DNA of 64,000 nt from Nitrospira sp. (GTDB lineage: Bacteria; Nitrospirota; Nitrospiria; Nitrospirales; Nitrospiraceae): NCBI GenBank assembly GCA_030123625.1, contig CP126121.1:2334179-2398178 (forward strand). The letters are read 5' to 3'. Numbering within the stretch: position 1 is the first letter of the stretch; each line of letters begins with the position of its first letter. The notes beneath the pieces are model-generated. The model was given only the letters and a program-made list of their open reading frames with translations. It was not told the origin of the DNA and ran no database searches. The position numbers were made by a program, and so were the translations under genes. Shown here piece by piece: positions 31,822 to 39,452 of this stretch.

Positions 31822-32736
31822 TCAGCCCAACAACATCGTAGCCAGTCGAGGCAACCAGGGAAGCGTGACGACAGCGAGGCAAATGGAGAGGGCCACAATG
31901 GAAGCGACCAGTTCCTCATCGAGTCGCGTTTCAGCGGCGAAGATCACGGAGCTGACCGCCGCCGGCATCGCCGCTACAAGGACCACGACGGCTCGTTCTA
32001 TTCCCGTCAATCCAAGCAACCATACCGCCGACAAGCCGAGCACAAGCCCGCCACCCATTCGAACGGCCACACCCAGTATGGCCAATCGCGCGGTCCGCCG
32101 GACCGCTGAGAAACTGATCGACAGTCCGAGCACGAAACTGGCGAGCGGCGTCGTGGTGACGTGCAATGGCGTGAGGACTTCATGCAGCCAGGGAGGGAGA
32201 TGATGCCCGGAAAACTTCACGAAGAGGATGCAAACCAGGGCCCATAACGGCGGCGATGACAGGAAGCGGATTACAGTTGACCCGGGTGTAGCGGACGGTG
32301 TGCCGTGCCAGACGGCGAGCCCGTAAAGAACGGTCAGAGTCAGCAGGGTTTGTCCAAGGTCAAAGAGCACCGCCTGAGTCAATCCTTCTTCGCCGAACGT
32401 GGCGAGGATGACGGGAAACGCAAAATACACGGAATTGATCGAACCGGTGGTCAGTACGAAGCCGCCTTGCGTCCGACGTGGAAGCTGCAGCAGGCGGGCA
32501 AGTTGCCAAGAGCCGACGACGATCGGGAGTGTGATGAGGCAAGCGGCCAACGGAAGTTTCCACGCCGTCGATGTAAGGGGCACCCGATCGAGAGAAACGA
32601 GAATCGTCGCGGGCAGACTGACGGTAAAGACGAACGTCGCCAACCGTTCAGCATGAGTTTGAGTCACCACGGCAAGGGCTCGCAGCAAGATGCCGATCAC
32701 GAAGATGGCGATGAAGATTTGAAGGGAAGAGGGCAT
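31822..32736 (-). CDS. AEC-family transporter (auxin efflux carrier family)
   Basis: This 304-residue membrane protein has about ten hydrophobic helices in two halves of five. Family features include an early P-A-T-I-L segment (FVFTVSLPATILVSL), GSINSVYFAFPVILATFGEEGL, and a late MPAAVSSVIFAAETRLDEELVAS near residue 260. AEC transporters move small organic anions or related solutes; substrate unknown. It is transcribed away from the L7/L12-CTD-like gene at 32906, and the 170 bp between them should hold promoters for both. Confidence 0.92.
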   Translation of the reverse strand: MPSSLQIFIAIFVIGILLRALAVVTQTHAERLATFVFTVSLPATILVSLDRVPLTSTAWKLPLAACLITLPIVVGSWQLARLLQLPRRTQGGFVLTTGSINSVYFAFPVILATFGEEGLTQAVLFDLGQTLLTLTVLYGLAVWHGTPSATPGSTVIRFLSSPPLWALVCILFVKFSGHHLPPWLHEVLTPLHVTTTPLASFVLGLSISFSAVRRTARLAILGVAVRMGGGLVLGLSAVWLLGLTGIERAVVVLVAAMPAAVSSVIFAAETRLDEELVASIVALSICLAVVTLPWLPRLATMLLG

Positions 32737-32905
32737 GGCGGCTGAGGGATCGGAAGAGCATGATGCCTTGCTCCGGACACAGATACAACTGTCTCAGCGG
32801 ATAGGCCTAGGTGGAGACCATGTGTTGCCTCCTCTATGCGTAGCGGTTATAAACGACACAACGACACATGGTACAGGGTTCTTCCGCTCAGGCATTGTCC
32901 TAAGC

Positions 32906-33187
32906 ATGAGAAACAAACCACGGCATTCTTCTGATTTTCCCAAAGCGGCAGTGGAGGCCCTGCGGCACGGCAATGTGATCGAAGCGATCAGGGTGGTTCG
33001 CCATGAGCGGAATATCGGTCTGAAAGAGGCGAAGGGTGTGATCGATGTCTATATCGCCTCCCAGCCCACCCTCAAGAAAAAGATTGATCGGGTGCTTGCC
33101 ACGGCGCAACAGAGATTTATTCGTTGGCTGATCGGATTTCTGGTGCTTGCAGCCGGGGTCGCGTATCTCGTGATGCGTGGACCGTGA
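32906..33187 (+). CDS. L7/L12 C-terminal-domain-like protein with a membrane anchor, copy 1
   Basis: This 93-residue protein has the segment PKAAVEALRHGNVIEAIRVVRHERNIGLKEAKGVID. Its alpha-beta pattern (EAI..VR.ERNIGLKEAK) is close to the ribosomal L7/L12 C-terminal domain. A C-terminal transmembrane helix follows (WLIGFLVLAAGVAYLVM). A paralogue lies at 34035-34304 with the same order. ATG 32906 is chosen; an upstream in-frame start at 32735 would extend into the divergent promoter region. Function unknown. Confidence 0.8.
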   Translation: MRNKPRHSSDFPKAAVEALRHGNVIEAIRVVRHERNIGLKEAKGVIDVYIASQPTLKKKIDRVLATAQQRFIRWLIGFLVLAAGVAYLVMRGP

Positions 33188-34034: not shown

Positions 34035-34304
34035 GTGGAATACGAACTCCCCAAGAAAGCCCTGGAGGCGCTGTCGCAAGGCGATAGAAACGAAGCGATT
34101 GAACAGGTTCGGCTTGAGCGAAACATCAGTCGGGAGGAAGCCAGGGAACTGGTCGCGTCTTTTATCCTTGCGCAACCTTCTCTGCATCGGAGAATGAAAG
34201 ACAGCCAGTCGGAAACACAATGGGGTCTCATGCGCTGGTTGATCCTGTTCCAAGCCATCGCCGTCGCGATCGGCTACTTCCTCTTTTTCCGAGATCAATG
34301 GTGA
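34035..34304 (+). CDS. L7/L12 C-terminal-domain-like protein with a membrane anchor, copy 2
   Basis: This 89-residue protein starts at GTG with GGAGG about nine bases upstream. The pattern LPKKALEALSQGDRNEAIEQVRLERNISREEARELV repeats that of the gene at 32906. It too ends in a hydrophobic helix (MRWLILFQAIAVAIGYFLF). The pair arose by duplication and now flanks an exported NTF2-like gene. The role is unknown; ribosome-like or ClpS-like protein binding at the membrane is conceivable but unsupported. Confidence 0.8.
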   Translation: MEYELPKKALEALSQGDRNEAIEQVRLERNISREEARELVASFILAQPSLHRRMKDSQSETQWGLMRWLILFQAIAVAIGYFLFFRDQW

Positions 34305-34594
34305 CTACGGAATATCTCTGCCGTCAAGTGACATGATGCGGCGGACATGGTTCATGCCCATTGAGTCGATGGATTCGCTATACGGCAAACTGCCGAACGG
34401 ATCTCATCTCAAACACGATCTTGACTCCTGTGGAGAACGGCTGAGCCGTCTCCTCCGCGATGAGCAGAAGAGATACCTGCATTCCAGCAGATCCCACCCT
34501 CATCTACACGCATCGGGAAGCCTCATACACAACTGATAATCGGTTGCCATGCTCCTAGACTCCGCAGGGCATTCATGAGAAGGCCAAGACTGGG

Positions 34595-35491
34595 ATGACA
34601 AAAAAATCCCGCAGGAGAAGGGATCAGCGAATCAGACGGCGATACGGAGCAGGCGAACTCTTTGGGATGGCTGTTTCTGCATTGACTCCTGACGAGCTGC
34701 AAAGATTTTCCGCAGCGGGATTGAAAATCCCGTGCCCGCATAAAGCTAGTGGGGCGAATTGTCATAAAAAGGGAGGTATTTGTTCACTCATTTCTTTTGA
34801 AGACAAGGATGGGCAGGTTACGGTCATCGGATCTCCAATTACGACCTGTCCAAGTCGATTTCTGGAGAACAACTTAGTTTTTGAATGGGTAGGTCAAACT
34901 GTTCTTGGCATGAGTAATCCAACCATTGTATCCGAAGTTTCATTTTTAATGGGAAAAGAACAGAAAGAATCCGAACCTGAAGACGAGGTTGGGAGGATCG
35001 ATAAGGTCTTGGTTGATGTAAGAGAGCAAGACCTGAAATGGTGTGCGCTTGAAATGCAGGCGGTGTATTTTTCCGGGCAGAAAATGGAAAGCGACTTTGC
35101 CTTGATGCGAGAATGGAAAGGTCCCGGCCTGCCTTTTCCATCAAGAATTCGCCGTCCTGACTTTCGGTCGTCTGGCCCAAAACGATTGATGCCACAGCTT
35201 CAGATCAAAGTCCCCACGCTCCGGCGATGGGGCAAGAAAATGGCAGTCGTTGTAGACAAAGCATTCGCCGAATCTCTATGGCCAATGAGAAGAGTCGGCC
35301 ATATTTCGAACGCAGATATTATTTGGTTTATAGTGACCTATGGTGATGTTCAGGAAGGGAGACATTCACTCCAAAAACATGATCTTCTGATGACCACGTT
35401 GGAAGACGCAGTGGAGGGTCTTACAGGGGGAGTGCCTGTAACGCTTGACGCGTTCGAGACGTCGATTCGCGAAAAGCTATCGCGCTTGTAA
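34595..35491 (+). CDS. NotI-family type II restriction endonuclease
   Basis: This 298-residue protein resembles R.NotI. An N-terminal cysteine set at residues 47, 56, 63 and 85 (CPHKASGANC, GGIC, TTC) fits the Fe-Cys4 site of NotI. The catalytic core follows: IVSEVSF, RIDKVLVD with Asp136, then WCALEMQAVY with Glu153 and Gln155, the E-x-Q form of the PD-(D/E)XK motif found in NotI. The cytoplasmic enzyme would cut unmodified foreign DNA at a fixed site. Its 3' end overlaps the convergent methyltransferase gene by 71 bp. GC is lower than in the neighbours, pointing to horizontal transfer. The recognition site cannot be read from sequence. Confidence 0.85.
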   Translation: MTKKSRRRRDQRIRRRYGAGELFGMAVSALTPDELQRFSAAGLKIPCPHKASGANCHKKGGICSLISFEDKDGQVTVIGSPITTCPSRFLENNLVFEWVGQTVLGMSNPTIVSEVSFLMGKEQKESEPEDEVGRIDKVLVDVREQDLKWCALEMQAVYFSGQKMESDFALMREWKGPGLPFPSRIRRPDFRSSGPKRLMPQLQIKVPTLRRWGKKMAVVVDKAFAESLWPMRRVGHISNADIIWFIVTYGDVQEGRHSLQKHDLLMTTLEDAVEGLTGGVPVTLDAFETSIREKLSRL

Positions 35492-36494
35492 GCCAGCTTA
35501 GATCCTTGCCTACCAGCAATTCCGTCATCCTGGCATGATGAGTGTTCTTCATCGTGACGGCTCTCGTCTCAAAATCGAATTCCGTGGCGAGCTGTTCGAT
35601 CTCTACCGTGTGATCATACGTCAGCAGGACTTCACCTTTTACCTCGCGGAGCAGGCCGAACAACTTTCGATGGTCAATTTGCCAGTGAGAGTAGAGTCGT
35701 CTTGCGGCCTTGGTATACGGCGGATCAACAAAAAAGACAGCTTCCTCATCATCCATATAAGCTTCTATCAGCTCAAGGCCGTCACGGTGGGAAAAGCTGA
35801 ATCGTTCTCTATGTTCCGCTATGTCGCGGATGCGTCTTGCCAAGGTTCCTGGATACCATCGCGAGCGTAGTCCACGACCATTTTCGCCGCTTTTCACGAG
35901 ACCGGCTCCTGGAGCCATGATTCCACCCCGTTGAACTCGATTTCTAAGAATGGTCGAAAATGCCTTCTCGCGTTGCGTCAATGGTTGTCTGCCGAGCACA
36001 GCCAATACGTTTTGCTGAGTCAACTTAAAATTTTCAATAGAATTCGCTAACCATTCGGCTTGTCCGTAGAGAACGGCACTCCATACGGATGCTATCTGAT
36101 CATCTTTTTCGCCTAAGACGACATGTTTAGCGAGTTCTTCAAAGCCGACCGTAAGTCCGATGATCCCTCCACCTGCAAACGGTTCAACGAGGACGTTTGG
36201 CTTACGAGGTAGTTTTGATAGCCAAGTTCTCACACACGGTACGAGCCATGTTTTTCCACCTGGATATCGAAAGGGGGATCTCTGTGGAATAGAAGCAACG
36301 TTGATAGGGGTATCGAGCGGGGTGTTCTCAGCAGTCCTATAAGTGGCCTGAGTTTCTTTCTGGGAATAATCTTCTAGTTTATCGAGGGCAATGGCATAGC
36401 TGATGACTTTCTTCGACAATACCGCTGGGATTCGAATAACAGTTGTCCTCCCTTTTCTCCATTTATTGGAAAATGTTGTAGAGGAACGGGCCAC
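35421..36494 (-). CDS. D12-class DNA adenine-N6 methyltransferase
   Basis: The protein has about 357 residues from a GTG start at 36494. The Dam/D12-family core begins at SPFRYPGGKTWLV, with motif I VEPFAGGGIIGL, motif IV FFVDPPYTKAARRLY and a closing VLLTYDHTVEIEQLA. A basic N-terminal extension of about 70 residues (KGRTTVIRIPAVLSKKV) precedes it. It probably protects the host from the convergently encoded NotI-like nuclease. A longer ORF reaches 36530, but a sigma-70-type promoter overlaps that part, so GTG 36494 fits better, possibly as a leaderless start. D12 enzymes methylate adenine, so the shared site should contain an A. Confidence 0.85.
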   Translation of the reverse strand: MARSSTTFSNKWRKGRTTVIRIPAVLSKKVISYAIALDKLEDYSQKETQATYRTAENTPLDTPINVASIPQRSPFRYPGGKTWLVPCVRTWLSKLPRKPNVLVEPFAGGGIIGLTVGFEELAKHVVLGEKDDQIASVWSAVLYGQAEWLANSIENFKLTQQNVLAVLGRQPLTQREKAFSTILRNRVQRGGIMAPGAGLVKSGENGRGLRSRWYPGTLARRIRDIAEHRERFSFSHRDGLELIEAYMDDEEAVFFVDPPYTKAARRLYSHWQIDHRKLFGLLREVKGEVLLTYDHTVEIEQLATEFDFETRAVTMKNTHHARMTELLVGKDLSWLTSAIAFRESTSRTRQALQALPL

Positions 36495-36501
36495 GGCCCC
36501 G

Positions 36502-36530
36502 TATATATAGCGAGTTAAGTACCAAGTCAA
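36502..36530 (-). promoter_or_regulatory. Sigma-70-type promoter of the methyltransferase gene
   Basis: On the minus strand TTGACT (36530-36525) is followed after 17 bases by TATATA (36507-36502). The predicted transcription start, about 7 bases on, coincides with GTG at 36494. Consensus boxes with ideal spacing are rare in this GC-rich window. Confidence 0.65.
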
Positions 36531-36572
36531 GCCCTTGTTACACGGGATCGACCTAGAGGATCGTTTTTACAA

Positions 36573-39452
36573 ATGGAGAAAATAGAGAAAGGAATCCCAG
36601 CGTCTCGTGAAATGAAGGCGACAAAGGCTTGGCACGCCCTGTCCCCACAAATCCTGGCTGATGAACTTCTGACCGACCTCGATATGGGTTTGAATGTCGA
36701 TGAAGCTGCCCGTCGGCAAGCACAGGAAGGGCCCAATGAACTGCCCGAGTCTCCTCCTCCCTCGCCGCTGAAACTCTTTCTCTCGCAGTTCTCGAGTCTT
36801 CTCGTGTGGGTGTTGATCGGGGCGGCCGTTGTGTCCGGTTTGTTGGAAGACTGGATCGATGCGGCGGCGATTCTGGCGATCGTGTTTCTCAACGGCGTGC
36901 TGGGATTTGTGCAGGAATTCCGGGCGGAGCAATCGCTGGCGGCGCTGCGCAAGATGTCGGTCGCGATGGCCCGCGTCATTCGCGCGGGCACGCTGCAGTC
37001 CATTCCGGCACGAGAACTGGTCAGAGGGGATGTGATTGCCCTCGAGGCGGGCGACCGTATTCCGGCCGATTCACGCTTGCTCTATGCCACGAATTTCCAA
37101 GCTCAAGAAGCTTCACTCACCGGCGAATCGACACCTGTACGAAAACAGGCGGAGCTGCTCGATACCGAGCGACCGCTTGCGGATCAATGCAACATGGTCT
37201 TCATGGGCACCGAGGCCGTCTCCGGCAAGGCCCGTGGGCTGGTAGTGGCGACAGGCCTTGGAACGGAACTGGGCAAGATCGCCGCCATGATCCGAAAGGC
37301 CGCTGAAGCGGAGCGTGCCGAAACACCGCTGCAACGACGGTTGGAACAATTCAGCTATACACTCCTGTGGCTGGCGCTCGGTGTGGTCACGGTCGTGTTC
37401 GCTCTCGGGTATCTCAGGGGAGAACCGCTGGTGGAGATGTTCCTCATATCGGTGAGCCTCGCTGTGGCGACTGTGCCCGAGGGCCTTCCCGCCGTCGTCA
37501 CGATTACATTGGCTTTGGGCGTGACCAGGATGGCCAAGCGGCATGCGTTGATTCGTAAGCTGCCCGCAGTCGAAACGCTGGGTTCGGCCACCGTGATCTG
37601 CACCGACAAGACCGGCACCTTGACGAAGAATGAGATGACGGTGACCCATGTGATCATGGGTGACTCTCACTTCGAGGTGACCGGCGAGGGATATGAGCCG
37701 TCTGGGGAGATCCGCGAAGTCTGTGCTGAGTCAAAAGTCCTGAGTGCTGAGTTTTCAAGTCAAGGATTCGATCGTTACTCTGATAACTCAGAACTCAAGA
37801 CTCAGCACTCAGGACTCAGGACTCAGGACTCAGCATTCAGGACTGAGCATTCAGCACCCAGCACCCAGCACTCAGGACTTCCCCCTGGGCTGCGCGATCT
37901 TCTCACCGCCGCCGTGCTGTGCAACGGCGCGACATTGCGACAAGAGAACGGGACTTGGCGGATCATCGGCGATCCGACGGAAGCCGCGCTGCTCGTGGCG
38001 GCGGCGAAGGTCGGTCTCACGAAGACGGAGTTGGAGCGTCGGGCGCCGCTGGACAGAGAAGTTCCGTTCGATGCGGAGCGGAAAATGATGACGATCGTTC
38101 GCCGAACGGAGCAAGGCCGCATCGCTTACTGCAAAGGAGCGCCCGATGTCTTGCTGGAACGTTGCGCTGCGCGTCTCACGCTGGATGGCCGGACCGAAGC
38201 ACTGGATGACGAGCAGAGGCGACTGATCGGCGAAGCCGACGCGTCTTTGGCACAACGAGCCCTCCGCGTGCTGGCCGTCGCGTATAAGCCCGTCGGCCGA
38301 CCGGCGAGCGCGGACGAAGAGGTGGAGCGGGATTTGATCTTTCTCGGCCTCTTCGCAATGAAGGATCCCTTGCGATCCGAAGCAGTAGAGGCGGTGCGCC
38401 TCTGTCGGGACGCGGGCATCCGTACCGCCATGATCACGGGGGATCACAAGGAGACGGCGATCGCGATTGCCCGTGAATTAGGCCTGCATCGCGACGGCGG
38501 GATGGCGTTGTCCGGGGCGGAGCTGGACGGCTTGACCGACGAGGAATTAACGCAGCGTGTAGAGCGAATCAGTGTATACGCCCGCGTGTCGGCCGAGCAC
38601 AAGCTTCGGATCGTCCAAGCGTGGAAGCGGAACGGGGCCATTGTCGCCATGACCGGTGACGGGGTCAACGACGCGCCGGCCATCAAGGCGGCGGACATCG
38701 GTGTGGCGATGGGGATGGCCGGCACCGACGTGACAAAAGAGGCTTCGGATATCGTGGTGACGGACGACAACTTCGCCTCGATCGCCGCCGCGGTTGAGGA
38801 GGGCAGAGGCATCTTCGACAACATCAGGAAGGCGGTGCATTTCCTCCTGTCGTGCAACATCGGCGAAGTGTTGGTCATGCTCTTTGCCGCATTGCTCGGC
38901 TTGCCGCTGCCGCTCCTGCCGATTCAAATTCTGTGGATGAATCTCGTAACCGACGGCTTTCCCGCCCTCGCCCTGGCGGTCGATCCGAAAGCGCCGGATC
39001 TGATGCGGCAGCCGCCGCGACAGACCCGGGCGCGCTTACTGGAGGGGAGAAGGCTGTGGATCGTGGCCGGCGAAGGCATGATGCTGGCGGCCATTGCCTT
39101 GAGCGTGTTTTCGTACAGCTTGTTTGTCTGGCAACAGCCGATCGATCAGGCTCGGACGGTGACGTTCAGCGTGATGGTCGCCGCTCAGTTGGTGCATGCC
39201 TTTAATTGCAGAAGCGATCGTTGGTCGCTGTTTCAGGTGGGAGTGACGACGAATCGCTCGCTCATTTGGGCTGTCCTCGTGTCTCTTGCCCTGCAAATCG
39301 CCATTCTCGCGACCCCGGTCATGCAACCGATCTTCAAGGTCGCGCCCTTGCCGCTGGAAGATTGGGAACTGCTGGCGGCCATGACGTTTCTTCCATTGGT
39401 GATCGTAGAAACGATCAAATGGCTTCGAAGGCGGCCGGTCCTCAGCGTTTAG
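36573..39452 (+). CDS. P-type cation-transporting ATPase (P2A-like) with an in-frame repeat insertion
   Basis: This 959-residue pump has the N-terminal cation-ATPase domain ([20 protein letters not shown]), the actuator motif TGESTPVRK, membrane helix 4 with PEGLPAVVT and the phosphorylation site [16 protein letters not shown]. The hinge [21 protein letters not shown] and six C-terminal helices complete it. PEGL and [12 protein letters not shown] suggest a Ca2+/Mg2+-type P2 pump. Residues about 384-436 ([10 protein letters not shown] to QHSGL) are an insertion encoded by a heptamer array, placed between the phosphorylation region and the nucleotide-binding domain; this explains the extra length over a usual 890-900 residues. 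The start is 79 bp from the divergent methyltransferase start and has no clear ribosome-binding site. Confidence 0.93.
37723..37880 (+). repeat. ACTCAGG heptamer element inside the ATPase gene
   Basis: A left arm in reverse orientation (tgctgagtc, then agtcctgagtgctgag) is followed by a spacer beginning ttttcaag. The right arm consists of 13 consecutive 7-bp units from 37786 to 37876 (actcaga, actcaag, actcagc, actcagg three times, then variants). The reading frame stays open. The right arm encodes a heptapeptide repeat of the S-x-L-R-T-Q-H type. Confidence 0.85.

What the first reader, a model, noticed from the sequence alone, without database searches (positions are those of the whole stretch)
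34595..36494. NotI-family nuclease paired with an adenine methyltransferase
R.NotI reads GCGGCCGC, which contains no adenine. Here the convergent partner is a D12-class enzyme, a class that methylates adenine N6. If the two form one system, the nuclease must read a site with an A, so this would be a NotI-fold enzyme of new specificity. The module has low GC, overlapping 3' ends and its own consensus promoter, all signs of a transferred restriction-modification unit.
Basis: partly seen in the sequence, partly recalled or inferred. Interest (0 to 1): 0.62.

Follow-up and report, generated by a model that had tools for sequence, protein, structure and literature searches.

The report
NotI-like restriction pair, D12 methylase
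This is a mobile bacterial restriction system whose DNA-cutting enzyme resembles the laboratory enzyme NotI; its partner is labelled an adenine methylase, but its nearest studied relative methylates cytosine, so the cutting site need not contain an A.

Summary
Window 34595-35491 (+) is a NotI-family nuclease (PF12183, E 2.4e-56; model matches NotI at Z 17.9). 35421-36494 (-) is a D12-class methyltransferase with overlapping 3' ends. The module is 48% GC in a 57% GC window and is absent at the same gene junction in three relatives. The two genes form a real system: in 76 of 82 related loci the nuclease has a D12 partner. In the clearest cases without any methyltransferase the nuclease has lost catalytic residues.

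The inference that the site must contain an A is not supported. "D12" does not mean adenine. M.CbeI, a D12 enzyme with the same DPPY motif, makes N4-methylcytosine in GGCC (PMC3425538), and its structure (7m6b, identity inferred) is the closest solved match to this protein. D12 genes also sit beside HaeIII-family nucleases on cyanobacterial plasmids. NotI-family nucleases swap D12 for cytosine-C5 partners, once between nucleases 82% identical.

I favour a D12 enzyme protecting a GC-rich, NotI-like site by m4C (about 0.55) over m6A in an A-containing site (about 0.37). Neither is shown. The closest uncharacterised relatives are phage-type D12 enzymes of unknown base, and scans for avoided sites found nothing.

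The parts
34595..35491 (+). NotI-family (PF12183) restriction endonuclease, 298 aa; aligned active-site residues E114, D136, E153, Q155; four aligned cysteines C47, C56, C63, C85
35421..36494 (-). D12-class (alpha-class) DNA methyltransferase, 357 aa from GTG; motifs RYPGGK, EPFAGGG, DPPY (D of DPPY at 35726-35724)
35421..35491 (.). 71-bp overlap of the two convergent 3' ends; overlaps of 71 and 80 bp in the two closest homologous pairs
   Evidence: L018/L024 -71, L017/L025 -80
36502..36530 (-). near-consensus sigma-70-like promoter TTGACT-N17-TATATA directly before the GTG; the transcript may be leaderless (inferred)
   Evidence: sequence; not counted by the scan
34305..36572 (.). interval absent at the same gene junction in three relatives without the pair there (309-372 bp in its place)
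   Evidence: L199/G016, L202/G010, L206/G012
36269..36494 (-). N-terminal extension of about 75 aa before RYPGGK, seen in the convergent or divergent copies of this subclade; function unknown, modelled with low confidence

Best explanation
A mobile Type II restriction-modification system. The NotI-fold nuclease (a dimer in NotI, inferred here) cuts a palindromic site; the D12-class methyltransferase marks the same site in the host genome. Shown here by homology and comparison: the fold, the conserved active site, the conserved pairing, the insertion. Inferred: the D12 enzyme is an alpha-class N4-cytosine methyltransferase of the M.CbeI kind, and the site is GC-rich and NotI-like (possibly with a GGCC core), so no A is needed. 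Not shown: the site, the modified base, and activity.
For: Pairing: 76 of 82 loci with a NotI ORF carry a D12 relative, 72 of 76 within 20 bp or overlapping. All 86 tree rows with a D12 or C5 partner keep E114, D136, E153, Q155, K196, R197, Q201, K205 (two change one cysteine), while L019 (D136G, R197Q) and both copies in L087 (Q155H, R197S), which have no methyltransferase beside them, do not. Third-position excess between window and L024 in both genes. Fold: NotI 3c25 Z 17.9 over 261 residues. Cytosine reading: 7m6b 'Mcbe1' is the best solved match by sequence (2.1e-6; DpnM 0.62; profile 3.5e-8, no Dam entry within 1e-3) and by structure (Z 24.8; E. coli Dam 22.8). M.CbeI is D12, DPPY, m4C in GGCC (PMC3425538 passages). 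D12 plus HaeIII-family nuclease operons on Nostoc and Aulosira plasmids. The C5/D12 partner swap in the NotI family parallels HaeIII (m5C partner) and CbeI (m4C partner).
Against: The D12 proteins nearest to this family are phage and Lysinibacillus types of unknown base (profile E 2e-40 to 2e-31), nearer than the m4C group (2e-18 to 2e-12); in the tree the window family joins them at 100/99, not CbeI directly. Z 24.8 against 22.8 is a small margin. Other D12 enzymes are true m6A methyltransferases (Dam, DpnM). The partner swap fits a site with both A and C equally well. GCGGCCGC is not avoided in this genome: 185 copies against 172 of a matched palindrome.
Confidence: 0.55

Rival explanations
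1. One reading: the D12 enzyme makes N6-methyladenine and the NotI-fold nuclease reads a palindrome with at least one A (and, from the C5 swap, at least one C), a specificity different from NotI.
For: PF02086 and DPPY are typical of m6A enzymes; all 71 aligned D12 partners keep DPPY and match PF02086. The nearest D12 relatives are phage-type enzymes of unknown base. The C5 swap is compatible with a site holding both A and C.
Against: The nearest characterised relative is an m4C enzyme with the same DPPY. No palindrome containing A stands out as depleted in this genome relative to relatives.
Confidence: 0.37
2. The two genes are neighbours but not one system; the nuclease is protected by another methyltransferase of the genome.
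For: The genome has one C5 and three N6_N4 methyltransferase matches elsewhere.
Against: Conserved pairing across 76 of 82 loci and two further genomic settings within the genus (L017, L013). The genome's C5 gene lies beside a Vsr-like and a DUF1998-like gene (names by eye), as in DISARM, and is 26% identical to the NotI-linked C5. Nucleases without a linked methyltransferase are degenerate.
Confidence: 0.03
3. The pair is inactive or decaying in this genome.
For: Other copies in the genus are truncated (L010, L011: 127 and 135 aa).
Against: Both frames intact, active-site residues kept, third-codon-position excess against L024: 16/8/37 and 9/5/53 differences by codon position.
Confidence: 0.05

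Closest known systems
R.NotI (3bvq, 3c25), PF12183
   Same: Fold over 261 aligned residues, four cysteines, the D..E.Q active site, and a KR...Q...K segment aligned by profile
   Different: 15% identity; partner and site unknown here. GCGGCCGC for NotI is recalled from general knowledge and the finding; I found no source for M.NotI
M.CbeI / DmtB alpha-class N4-cytosine methyltransferases (GGCC)
   Same: D12 class, DPPY, RYPGGK; best solved structural and sequence match
   Different: about 23% identity; the target-recognition segment differs (NRVQRGGIM... against NRITFSGTV...); not the sister group in the tree
Dam/DpnM N6-adenine methyltransferases (GATC)
   Same: D12 fold, DPPY
   Different: 18% identity; the FNVPFG segment of Dam is missing; profile E 1e-4 to 2e-3 only
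NotI-family plus D12 pairs on pEST4011-type and Aeromonas plasmids
   Same: Same two families; nucleases 47-48% and methyltransferases 45-46% identical to the window's
   Different: Same-strand R then M order, conjugative or small plasmids
NotI-family plus cytosine-C5 pairs (pBN5, Sedimenticola, pESA2, pAER-a82d)
   Same: NotI-family nuclease; the pBN5 nuclease is 82% identical to pEST4011's
   Different: C5 methyltransferase in place of D12

Membership tests
PF12183 NotI nuclease family | score over the curated cut-off | tested here: met
   191.2 bits against 22
PF12183 NotI nuclease family | NotI fold | tested here: met
   3c25_A Z 17.9, rmsd 4.1, 261 aligned
PF12183 NotI nuclease family | active-site and four-cysteine residues aligned with NotI | tested here: met
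   metal binding itself not testable
NotI isoschizomers (GCGGCCGC) | cuts or protects GCGGCCGC | not testable with these tools
   no avoidance seen, which decides nothing for an 8-bp protected site
Type II restriction-modification system | nuclease and methyltransferase genes conserved together | tested here: met
   76 of 82 loci; 8 of 10 plasmid records D12, 2 of 10 C5
Type II restriction-modification system | same site for both enzymes | not testable with these tools
   needs biochemistry or long-read modification data
D12 (alpha-class) DNA methyltransferases | PF02086 match and DPPY | tested here: met
N6-adenine D12 methyltransferases | m6A product | not testable with these tools
   class alone does not decide it: M.CbeI is D12 and m4C
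M.CbeI-like N4-cytosine methyltransferases | falls inside the CbeI/HaeIII-partner clade | tested here: not met
   window family is outside it, with phage-type D12; the works-like claim rests on it being the closest characterised relative
M.CbeI-like N4-cytosine methyltransferases | m4C product | not testable with these tools
   no modification data

The most novel reading that the evidence does not exclude
A large, unrecognised family of NotI-fold rare-cutter systems (76 of 82 loci examined, 16 phyla by record label) in which an alpha-class D12 enzyme, usually annotated as an adenine methylase, is an N4-cytosine methyltransferase of long GC-rich specificity. It can be exchanged for C5 methyltransferases without changing the nuclease's site. 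If m6A instead, these are new A-containing rare cutters. Either way the specificity is undescribed in what I could search.
Probability: 0.5. Interest if true: 0.55.

Novelty: new variant of a known kind. Interest (0 to 1): 0.42.

Why it matters
Rare 8-bp cutters are useful tools and few are known. The D12 partners are annotated on public plasmid records as 'DNA adenine methylase', a label that here may name the wrong base. The D12-C5 exchange gives a natural test of which base protects a NotI-type site, and a 4-kb Aeromonas plasmid on which the pair fills two of the three annotated genes makes the question testable with existing or cheap long-read data.

Tried and rejected
Site avoidance. All 4-, 6- and 8-bp palindromes in 864 kb of this genome against 200 kb each of two relatives, 6-bp palindromes with gaps of 1-9, GGCC-core octamers and GCGATCGC: nothing specific to this genome. 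CTCGAG and CTAG are low, but also low in the relatives; CCGCGG is weakly low (z -2.5 in 64 tests); TCGA and AGCT are slightly lower than in the relatives (z -4.8 and -3.2, ratio about 0.9). GCGGCCGC against the dinucleotide-matched GCCGCGGC in 96 whole genomes: bearing genomes G000 1.08, G001 0.97, G010 1.01, G037 1.18; 30 non-bearing 0.97 with sd 0.14. That summary used 34 of the 58 same-genus rows plus 12 rows of genus g3, typed by hand; the other rows were left out without a fixed rule. In g3 the bearing genomes read 0.92, 0.56 and 0.47 and the others 0.43-0.55.

GCGATCGC as the site (NotI with an AT centre) was my own guess; no evidence.

Kuenenia methylome lead (PMC5854607, passages and section 6): only GATC among its m6A motifs is palindromic, but the one 4.4-Mb genome of the family searched has no PF12183 match and genomes there are unnamed, so the lead says nothing.

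PADLOC labels the methyltransferase PD-Lambda-5_B (9e-42) and MTase_II; the nuclease has no PADLOC match, so I did not file it as PD-Lambda-5. The ribbon-helix-helix guess for the N-terminal extension found no Pfam match in the window copy and low model confidence.

Of the solved-structure matches for the MTase, none outside the Dam/Mcbe1 group stands out. M.NotI's chemistry could not be found: the NotI structure paper is not held and the searches returned only unrelated papers.

Full report
What is there. The nuclease gene runs 34595-35491 on the plus strand (298 aa) and scores 191 bits to PF12183. The methyltransferase runs 36494-35421 on the minus strand from a GTG (357 aa) and belongs to PF02086. 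Their 3' ends overlap by 71 bp. The near-consensus promoter TTGACT-N17-TATATA ends about 7 nt before the GTG; in L024 both hexamers are unchanged while the spacer has changes. The automatic scan did not count it.

Origin. The window lies in a 4.69-Mb one-contig genome, of the genus Nitrospira by the record names of its close relatives. The module has 48.3% GC against 55.7% and 60.7% on its flanks. In G016 the upstream gene and the P-type ATPase that flank the module are 309 bp apart, in G010 372 bp, in G012 364 bp, against 2.3 kb here. G001 has the module at the same junction (93% and 95% identical). G010 has a 63% identical pair elsewhere, between an aminotransferase and a ribosomal L9 gene. 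So the unit moves.

Is it one system? PF12183 occurs in 12 of 98 related genomes. Of these, six have a D12 neighbour (G000, G001, G010, G037, G085, G093); G090 is cut by the contig end; G021 has none; G076 and G040 have an N6_N4 (SPPY) methyltransferase nearby instead; G018 and G030 are truncated. A wider scan found 264 relatives, of which the best 80 were returned, plus 4 in viral contigs. Of these 84 loci, 82 hold a NotI ORF and 76 of those a D12 relative: 69 on the same strand, 6 convergent, 1 divergent; 72 of 76 lie within 20 bp or overlap. The query alignment was built mostly from D12-paired copies (six of seven) and five of the loci repeat genomes, so this describes the clade and not all of PF12183. 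A few of the 76 nuclease genes are broken into two frames (L054, L070, L082). The tree's record labels name 16 phyla.

A natural control. Of 95 aligned nucleases, 87 match the window at 12 checked residues. The eight others are L073 and L041 (one cysteine each, D12 partner), L020 (Q155M, K196S) and L023 (R197T), both beside SPPY enzymes, and L019 (D136G, R197Q), L087, its second copy L087b and L092 (all Q155H with R197S; L087b also K196N). L019 and L087 have no methyltransferase beside them; L092 is cut 344 nt after the gene; L047, L066 and L095, also without D12, are cut by contig ends 371-725 nt after the gene and are intact. Where the partner is truly missing, the nuclease looks dead. L020 shows that a linked methyltransferase of another class does not guarantee an intact active site.

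Fold. The nuclease model (pLDDT 90.6) matches NotI bound to DNA at Z 17.9, 261 residues, 4.1 A; the best match other than NotI is 6.1. A family profile finds NotI by sequence at 1.1e-14, with the four cysteines, D, E.Q and KR...Q...K aligned.

Which base? Of solved chains, the methyltransferase is nearest to 7m6b by sequence (2.1e-6 against 0.62 for DpnM), by profile (3.5e-8, only hit within 1e-3) and by fold (Z 24.8 against 22.8 for E. coli Dam). The entry is titled 'Mcbe1'. That it is M.CbeI of Caldicellulosiruptor bescii is my inference from the name and from the 1.5e-93 match of a HaeIII-paired D12 enzyme. M.CbeI was annotated as D12 adenine-specific, has DPPY, and makes N4-methylcytosine in GGCC; DmtB of Anabaena does the same (PMC3425538, abstract and passages). 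D12 genes overlap HaeIII-family nuclease genes on Nostoc and Aulosira plasmids (PF09556 1.8e-21 and 6.6e-22). GGCC has no A.

Partner exchange. Ten plasmid records hold a match to the window nuclease. Eight have a D12 gene beside it (four opened; four by matching positions) and two a C5 methyltransferase. The pBN5 nuclease, C5-paired with a Vsr gene nearby, is 82% identical to the D12-paired pEST4011 nuclease and nests beside it (96/89). Sedimenticola (C5) is sister to a D12-paired Verrucomicrobiota copy (100/91). Six further plasmids opened from the C5 search, of 50 rows listed, all carry a NotI-family gene beside the C5 gene (in one search it is labelled hypothetical and is 97% identical to the pAER one). 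So nucleases that very likely share one site are guarded by a C5 enzyme in one place and a D12 enzyme in another. The site therefore contains C. HaeIII (m5C partner) and CbeI (m4C partner) show the same exchange on GGCC (PMC3425538).

Against this reading. The window family's nearest D12 relatives outside the family are phage, Psychrobacter, Curtobacterium, Parageobacillus and Lysinibacillus proteins of unknown base; the CbeI group is further off, though nearer than Dam and DpnM. I could not find a characterised member of the phage type. GTWWAC m6A methylation by BCAM0992 (PMC7364216, passages) shows a type-II-like adenine enzyme, but the passages seen do not give its class. No site avoidance was found, GCGGCCGC included. 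I put m4C at about 0.55 and m6A at about 0.37.

Novelty. The two parts and the general kind are known. The pairing is annotated piecemeal ('NotI family restriction endonuclease', 'DNA adenine methylase'). I found no paper on it in the searches (listings only, apart from the papers named above), in a library without most subscription journals and without REBASE. It is a new variant of a known kind, with specificity open.

Noticed in passing
window 37786-37879: A 7/14-bp tandem array (ACTCAGC-like, 13 copies) lies in frame inside the P-type ATPase gene, adding [10 protein letters not shown]-like repeats; alignments to several relatives break at about this point.
   Followed up: partly
window 32735-33187 and 34035-34304: Two short similar genes with an L7/L12 C-terminal-like motif and a hydrophobic tail flank a SnoaL-like gene (L12 match 0.0049 for the first, below cut-off; the likeness of the two is by eye).
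   Followed up: no
L182 (G000:C1 about 3563000): A C5 methyltransferase beside a Vsr-like gene and a DUF1998-like gene (names by eye), as in a DISARM-type defence system.
   Followed up: no
L087 4485-5822 and 6460-7542: A Chlorobiaceae genome carries two NotI-like genes with long N-terminal extensions, no methyltransferase and matching losses of Q155 and R197: possibly domesticated nucleases.
   Followed up: partly
L020 4256-6797: A divergent NotI-like gene with Q155M beside an HTH plus N6_N4 methyltransferase gene that weakly matches the MADS defence model MAD1.
   Followed up: no
L169 3506-3910: A Vsr (very short patch repair) gene lies beside the C5-paired NotI system of pBN5, as expected where m5C deaminates.
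   Followed up: no
window 36269-36494 and L029, L026, L025: An N-terminal extension (ARSSTTF..KW....TTVIR.P......) on the methyltransferase goes with convergent or divergent gene order; on a Sphingobium plasmid a CopG-family regulator gene precedes the C5 gene. Possibly an autoregulatory domain.
   Followed up: partly
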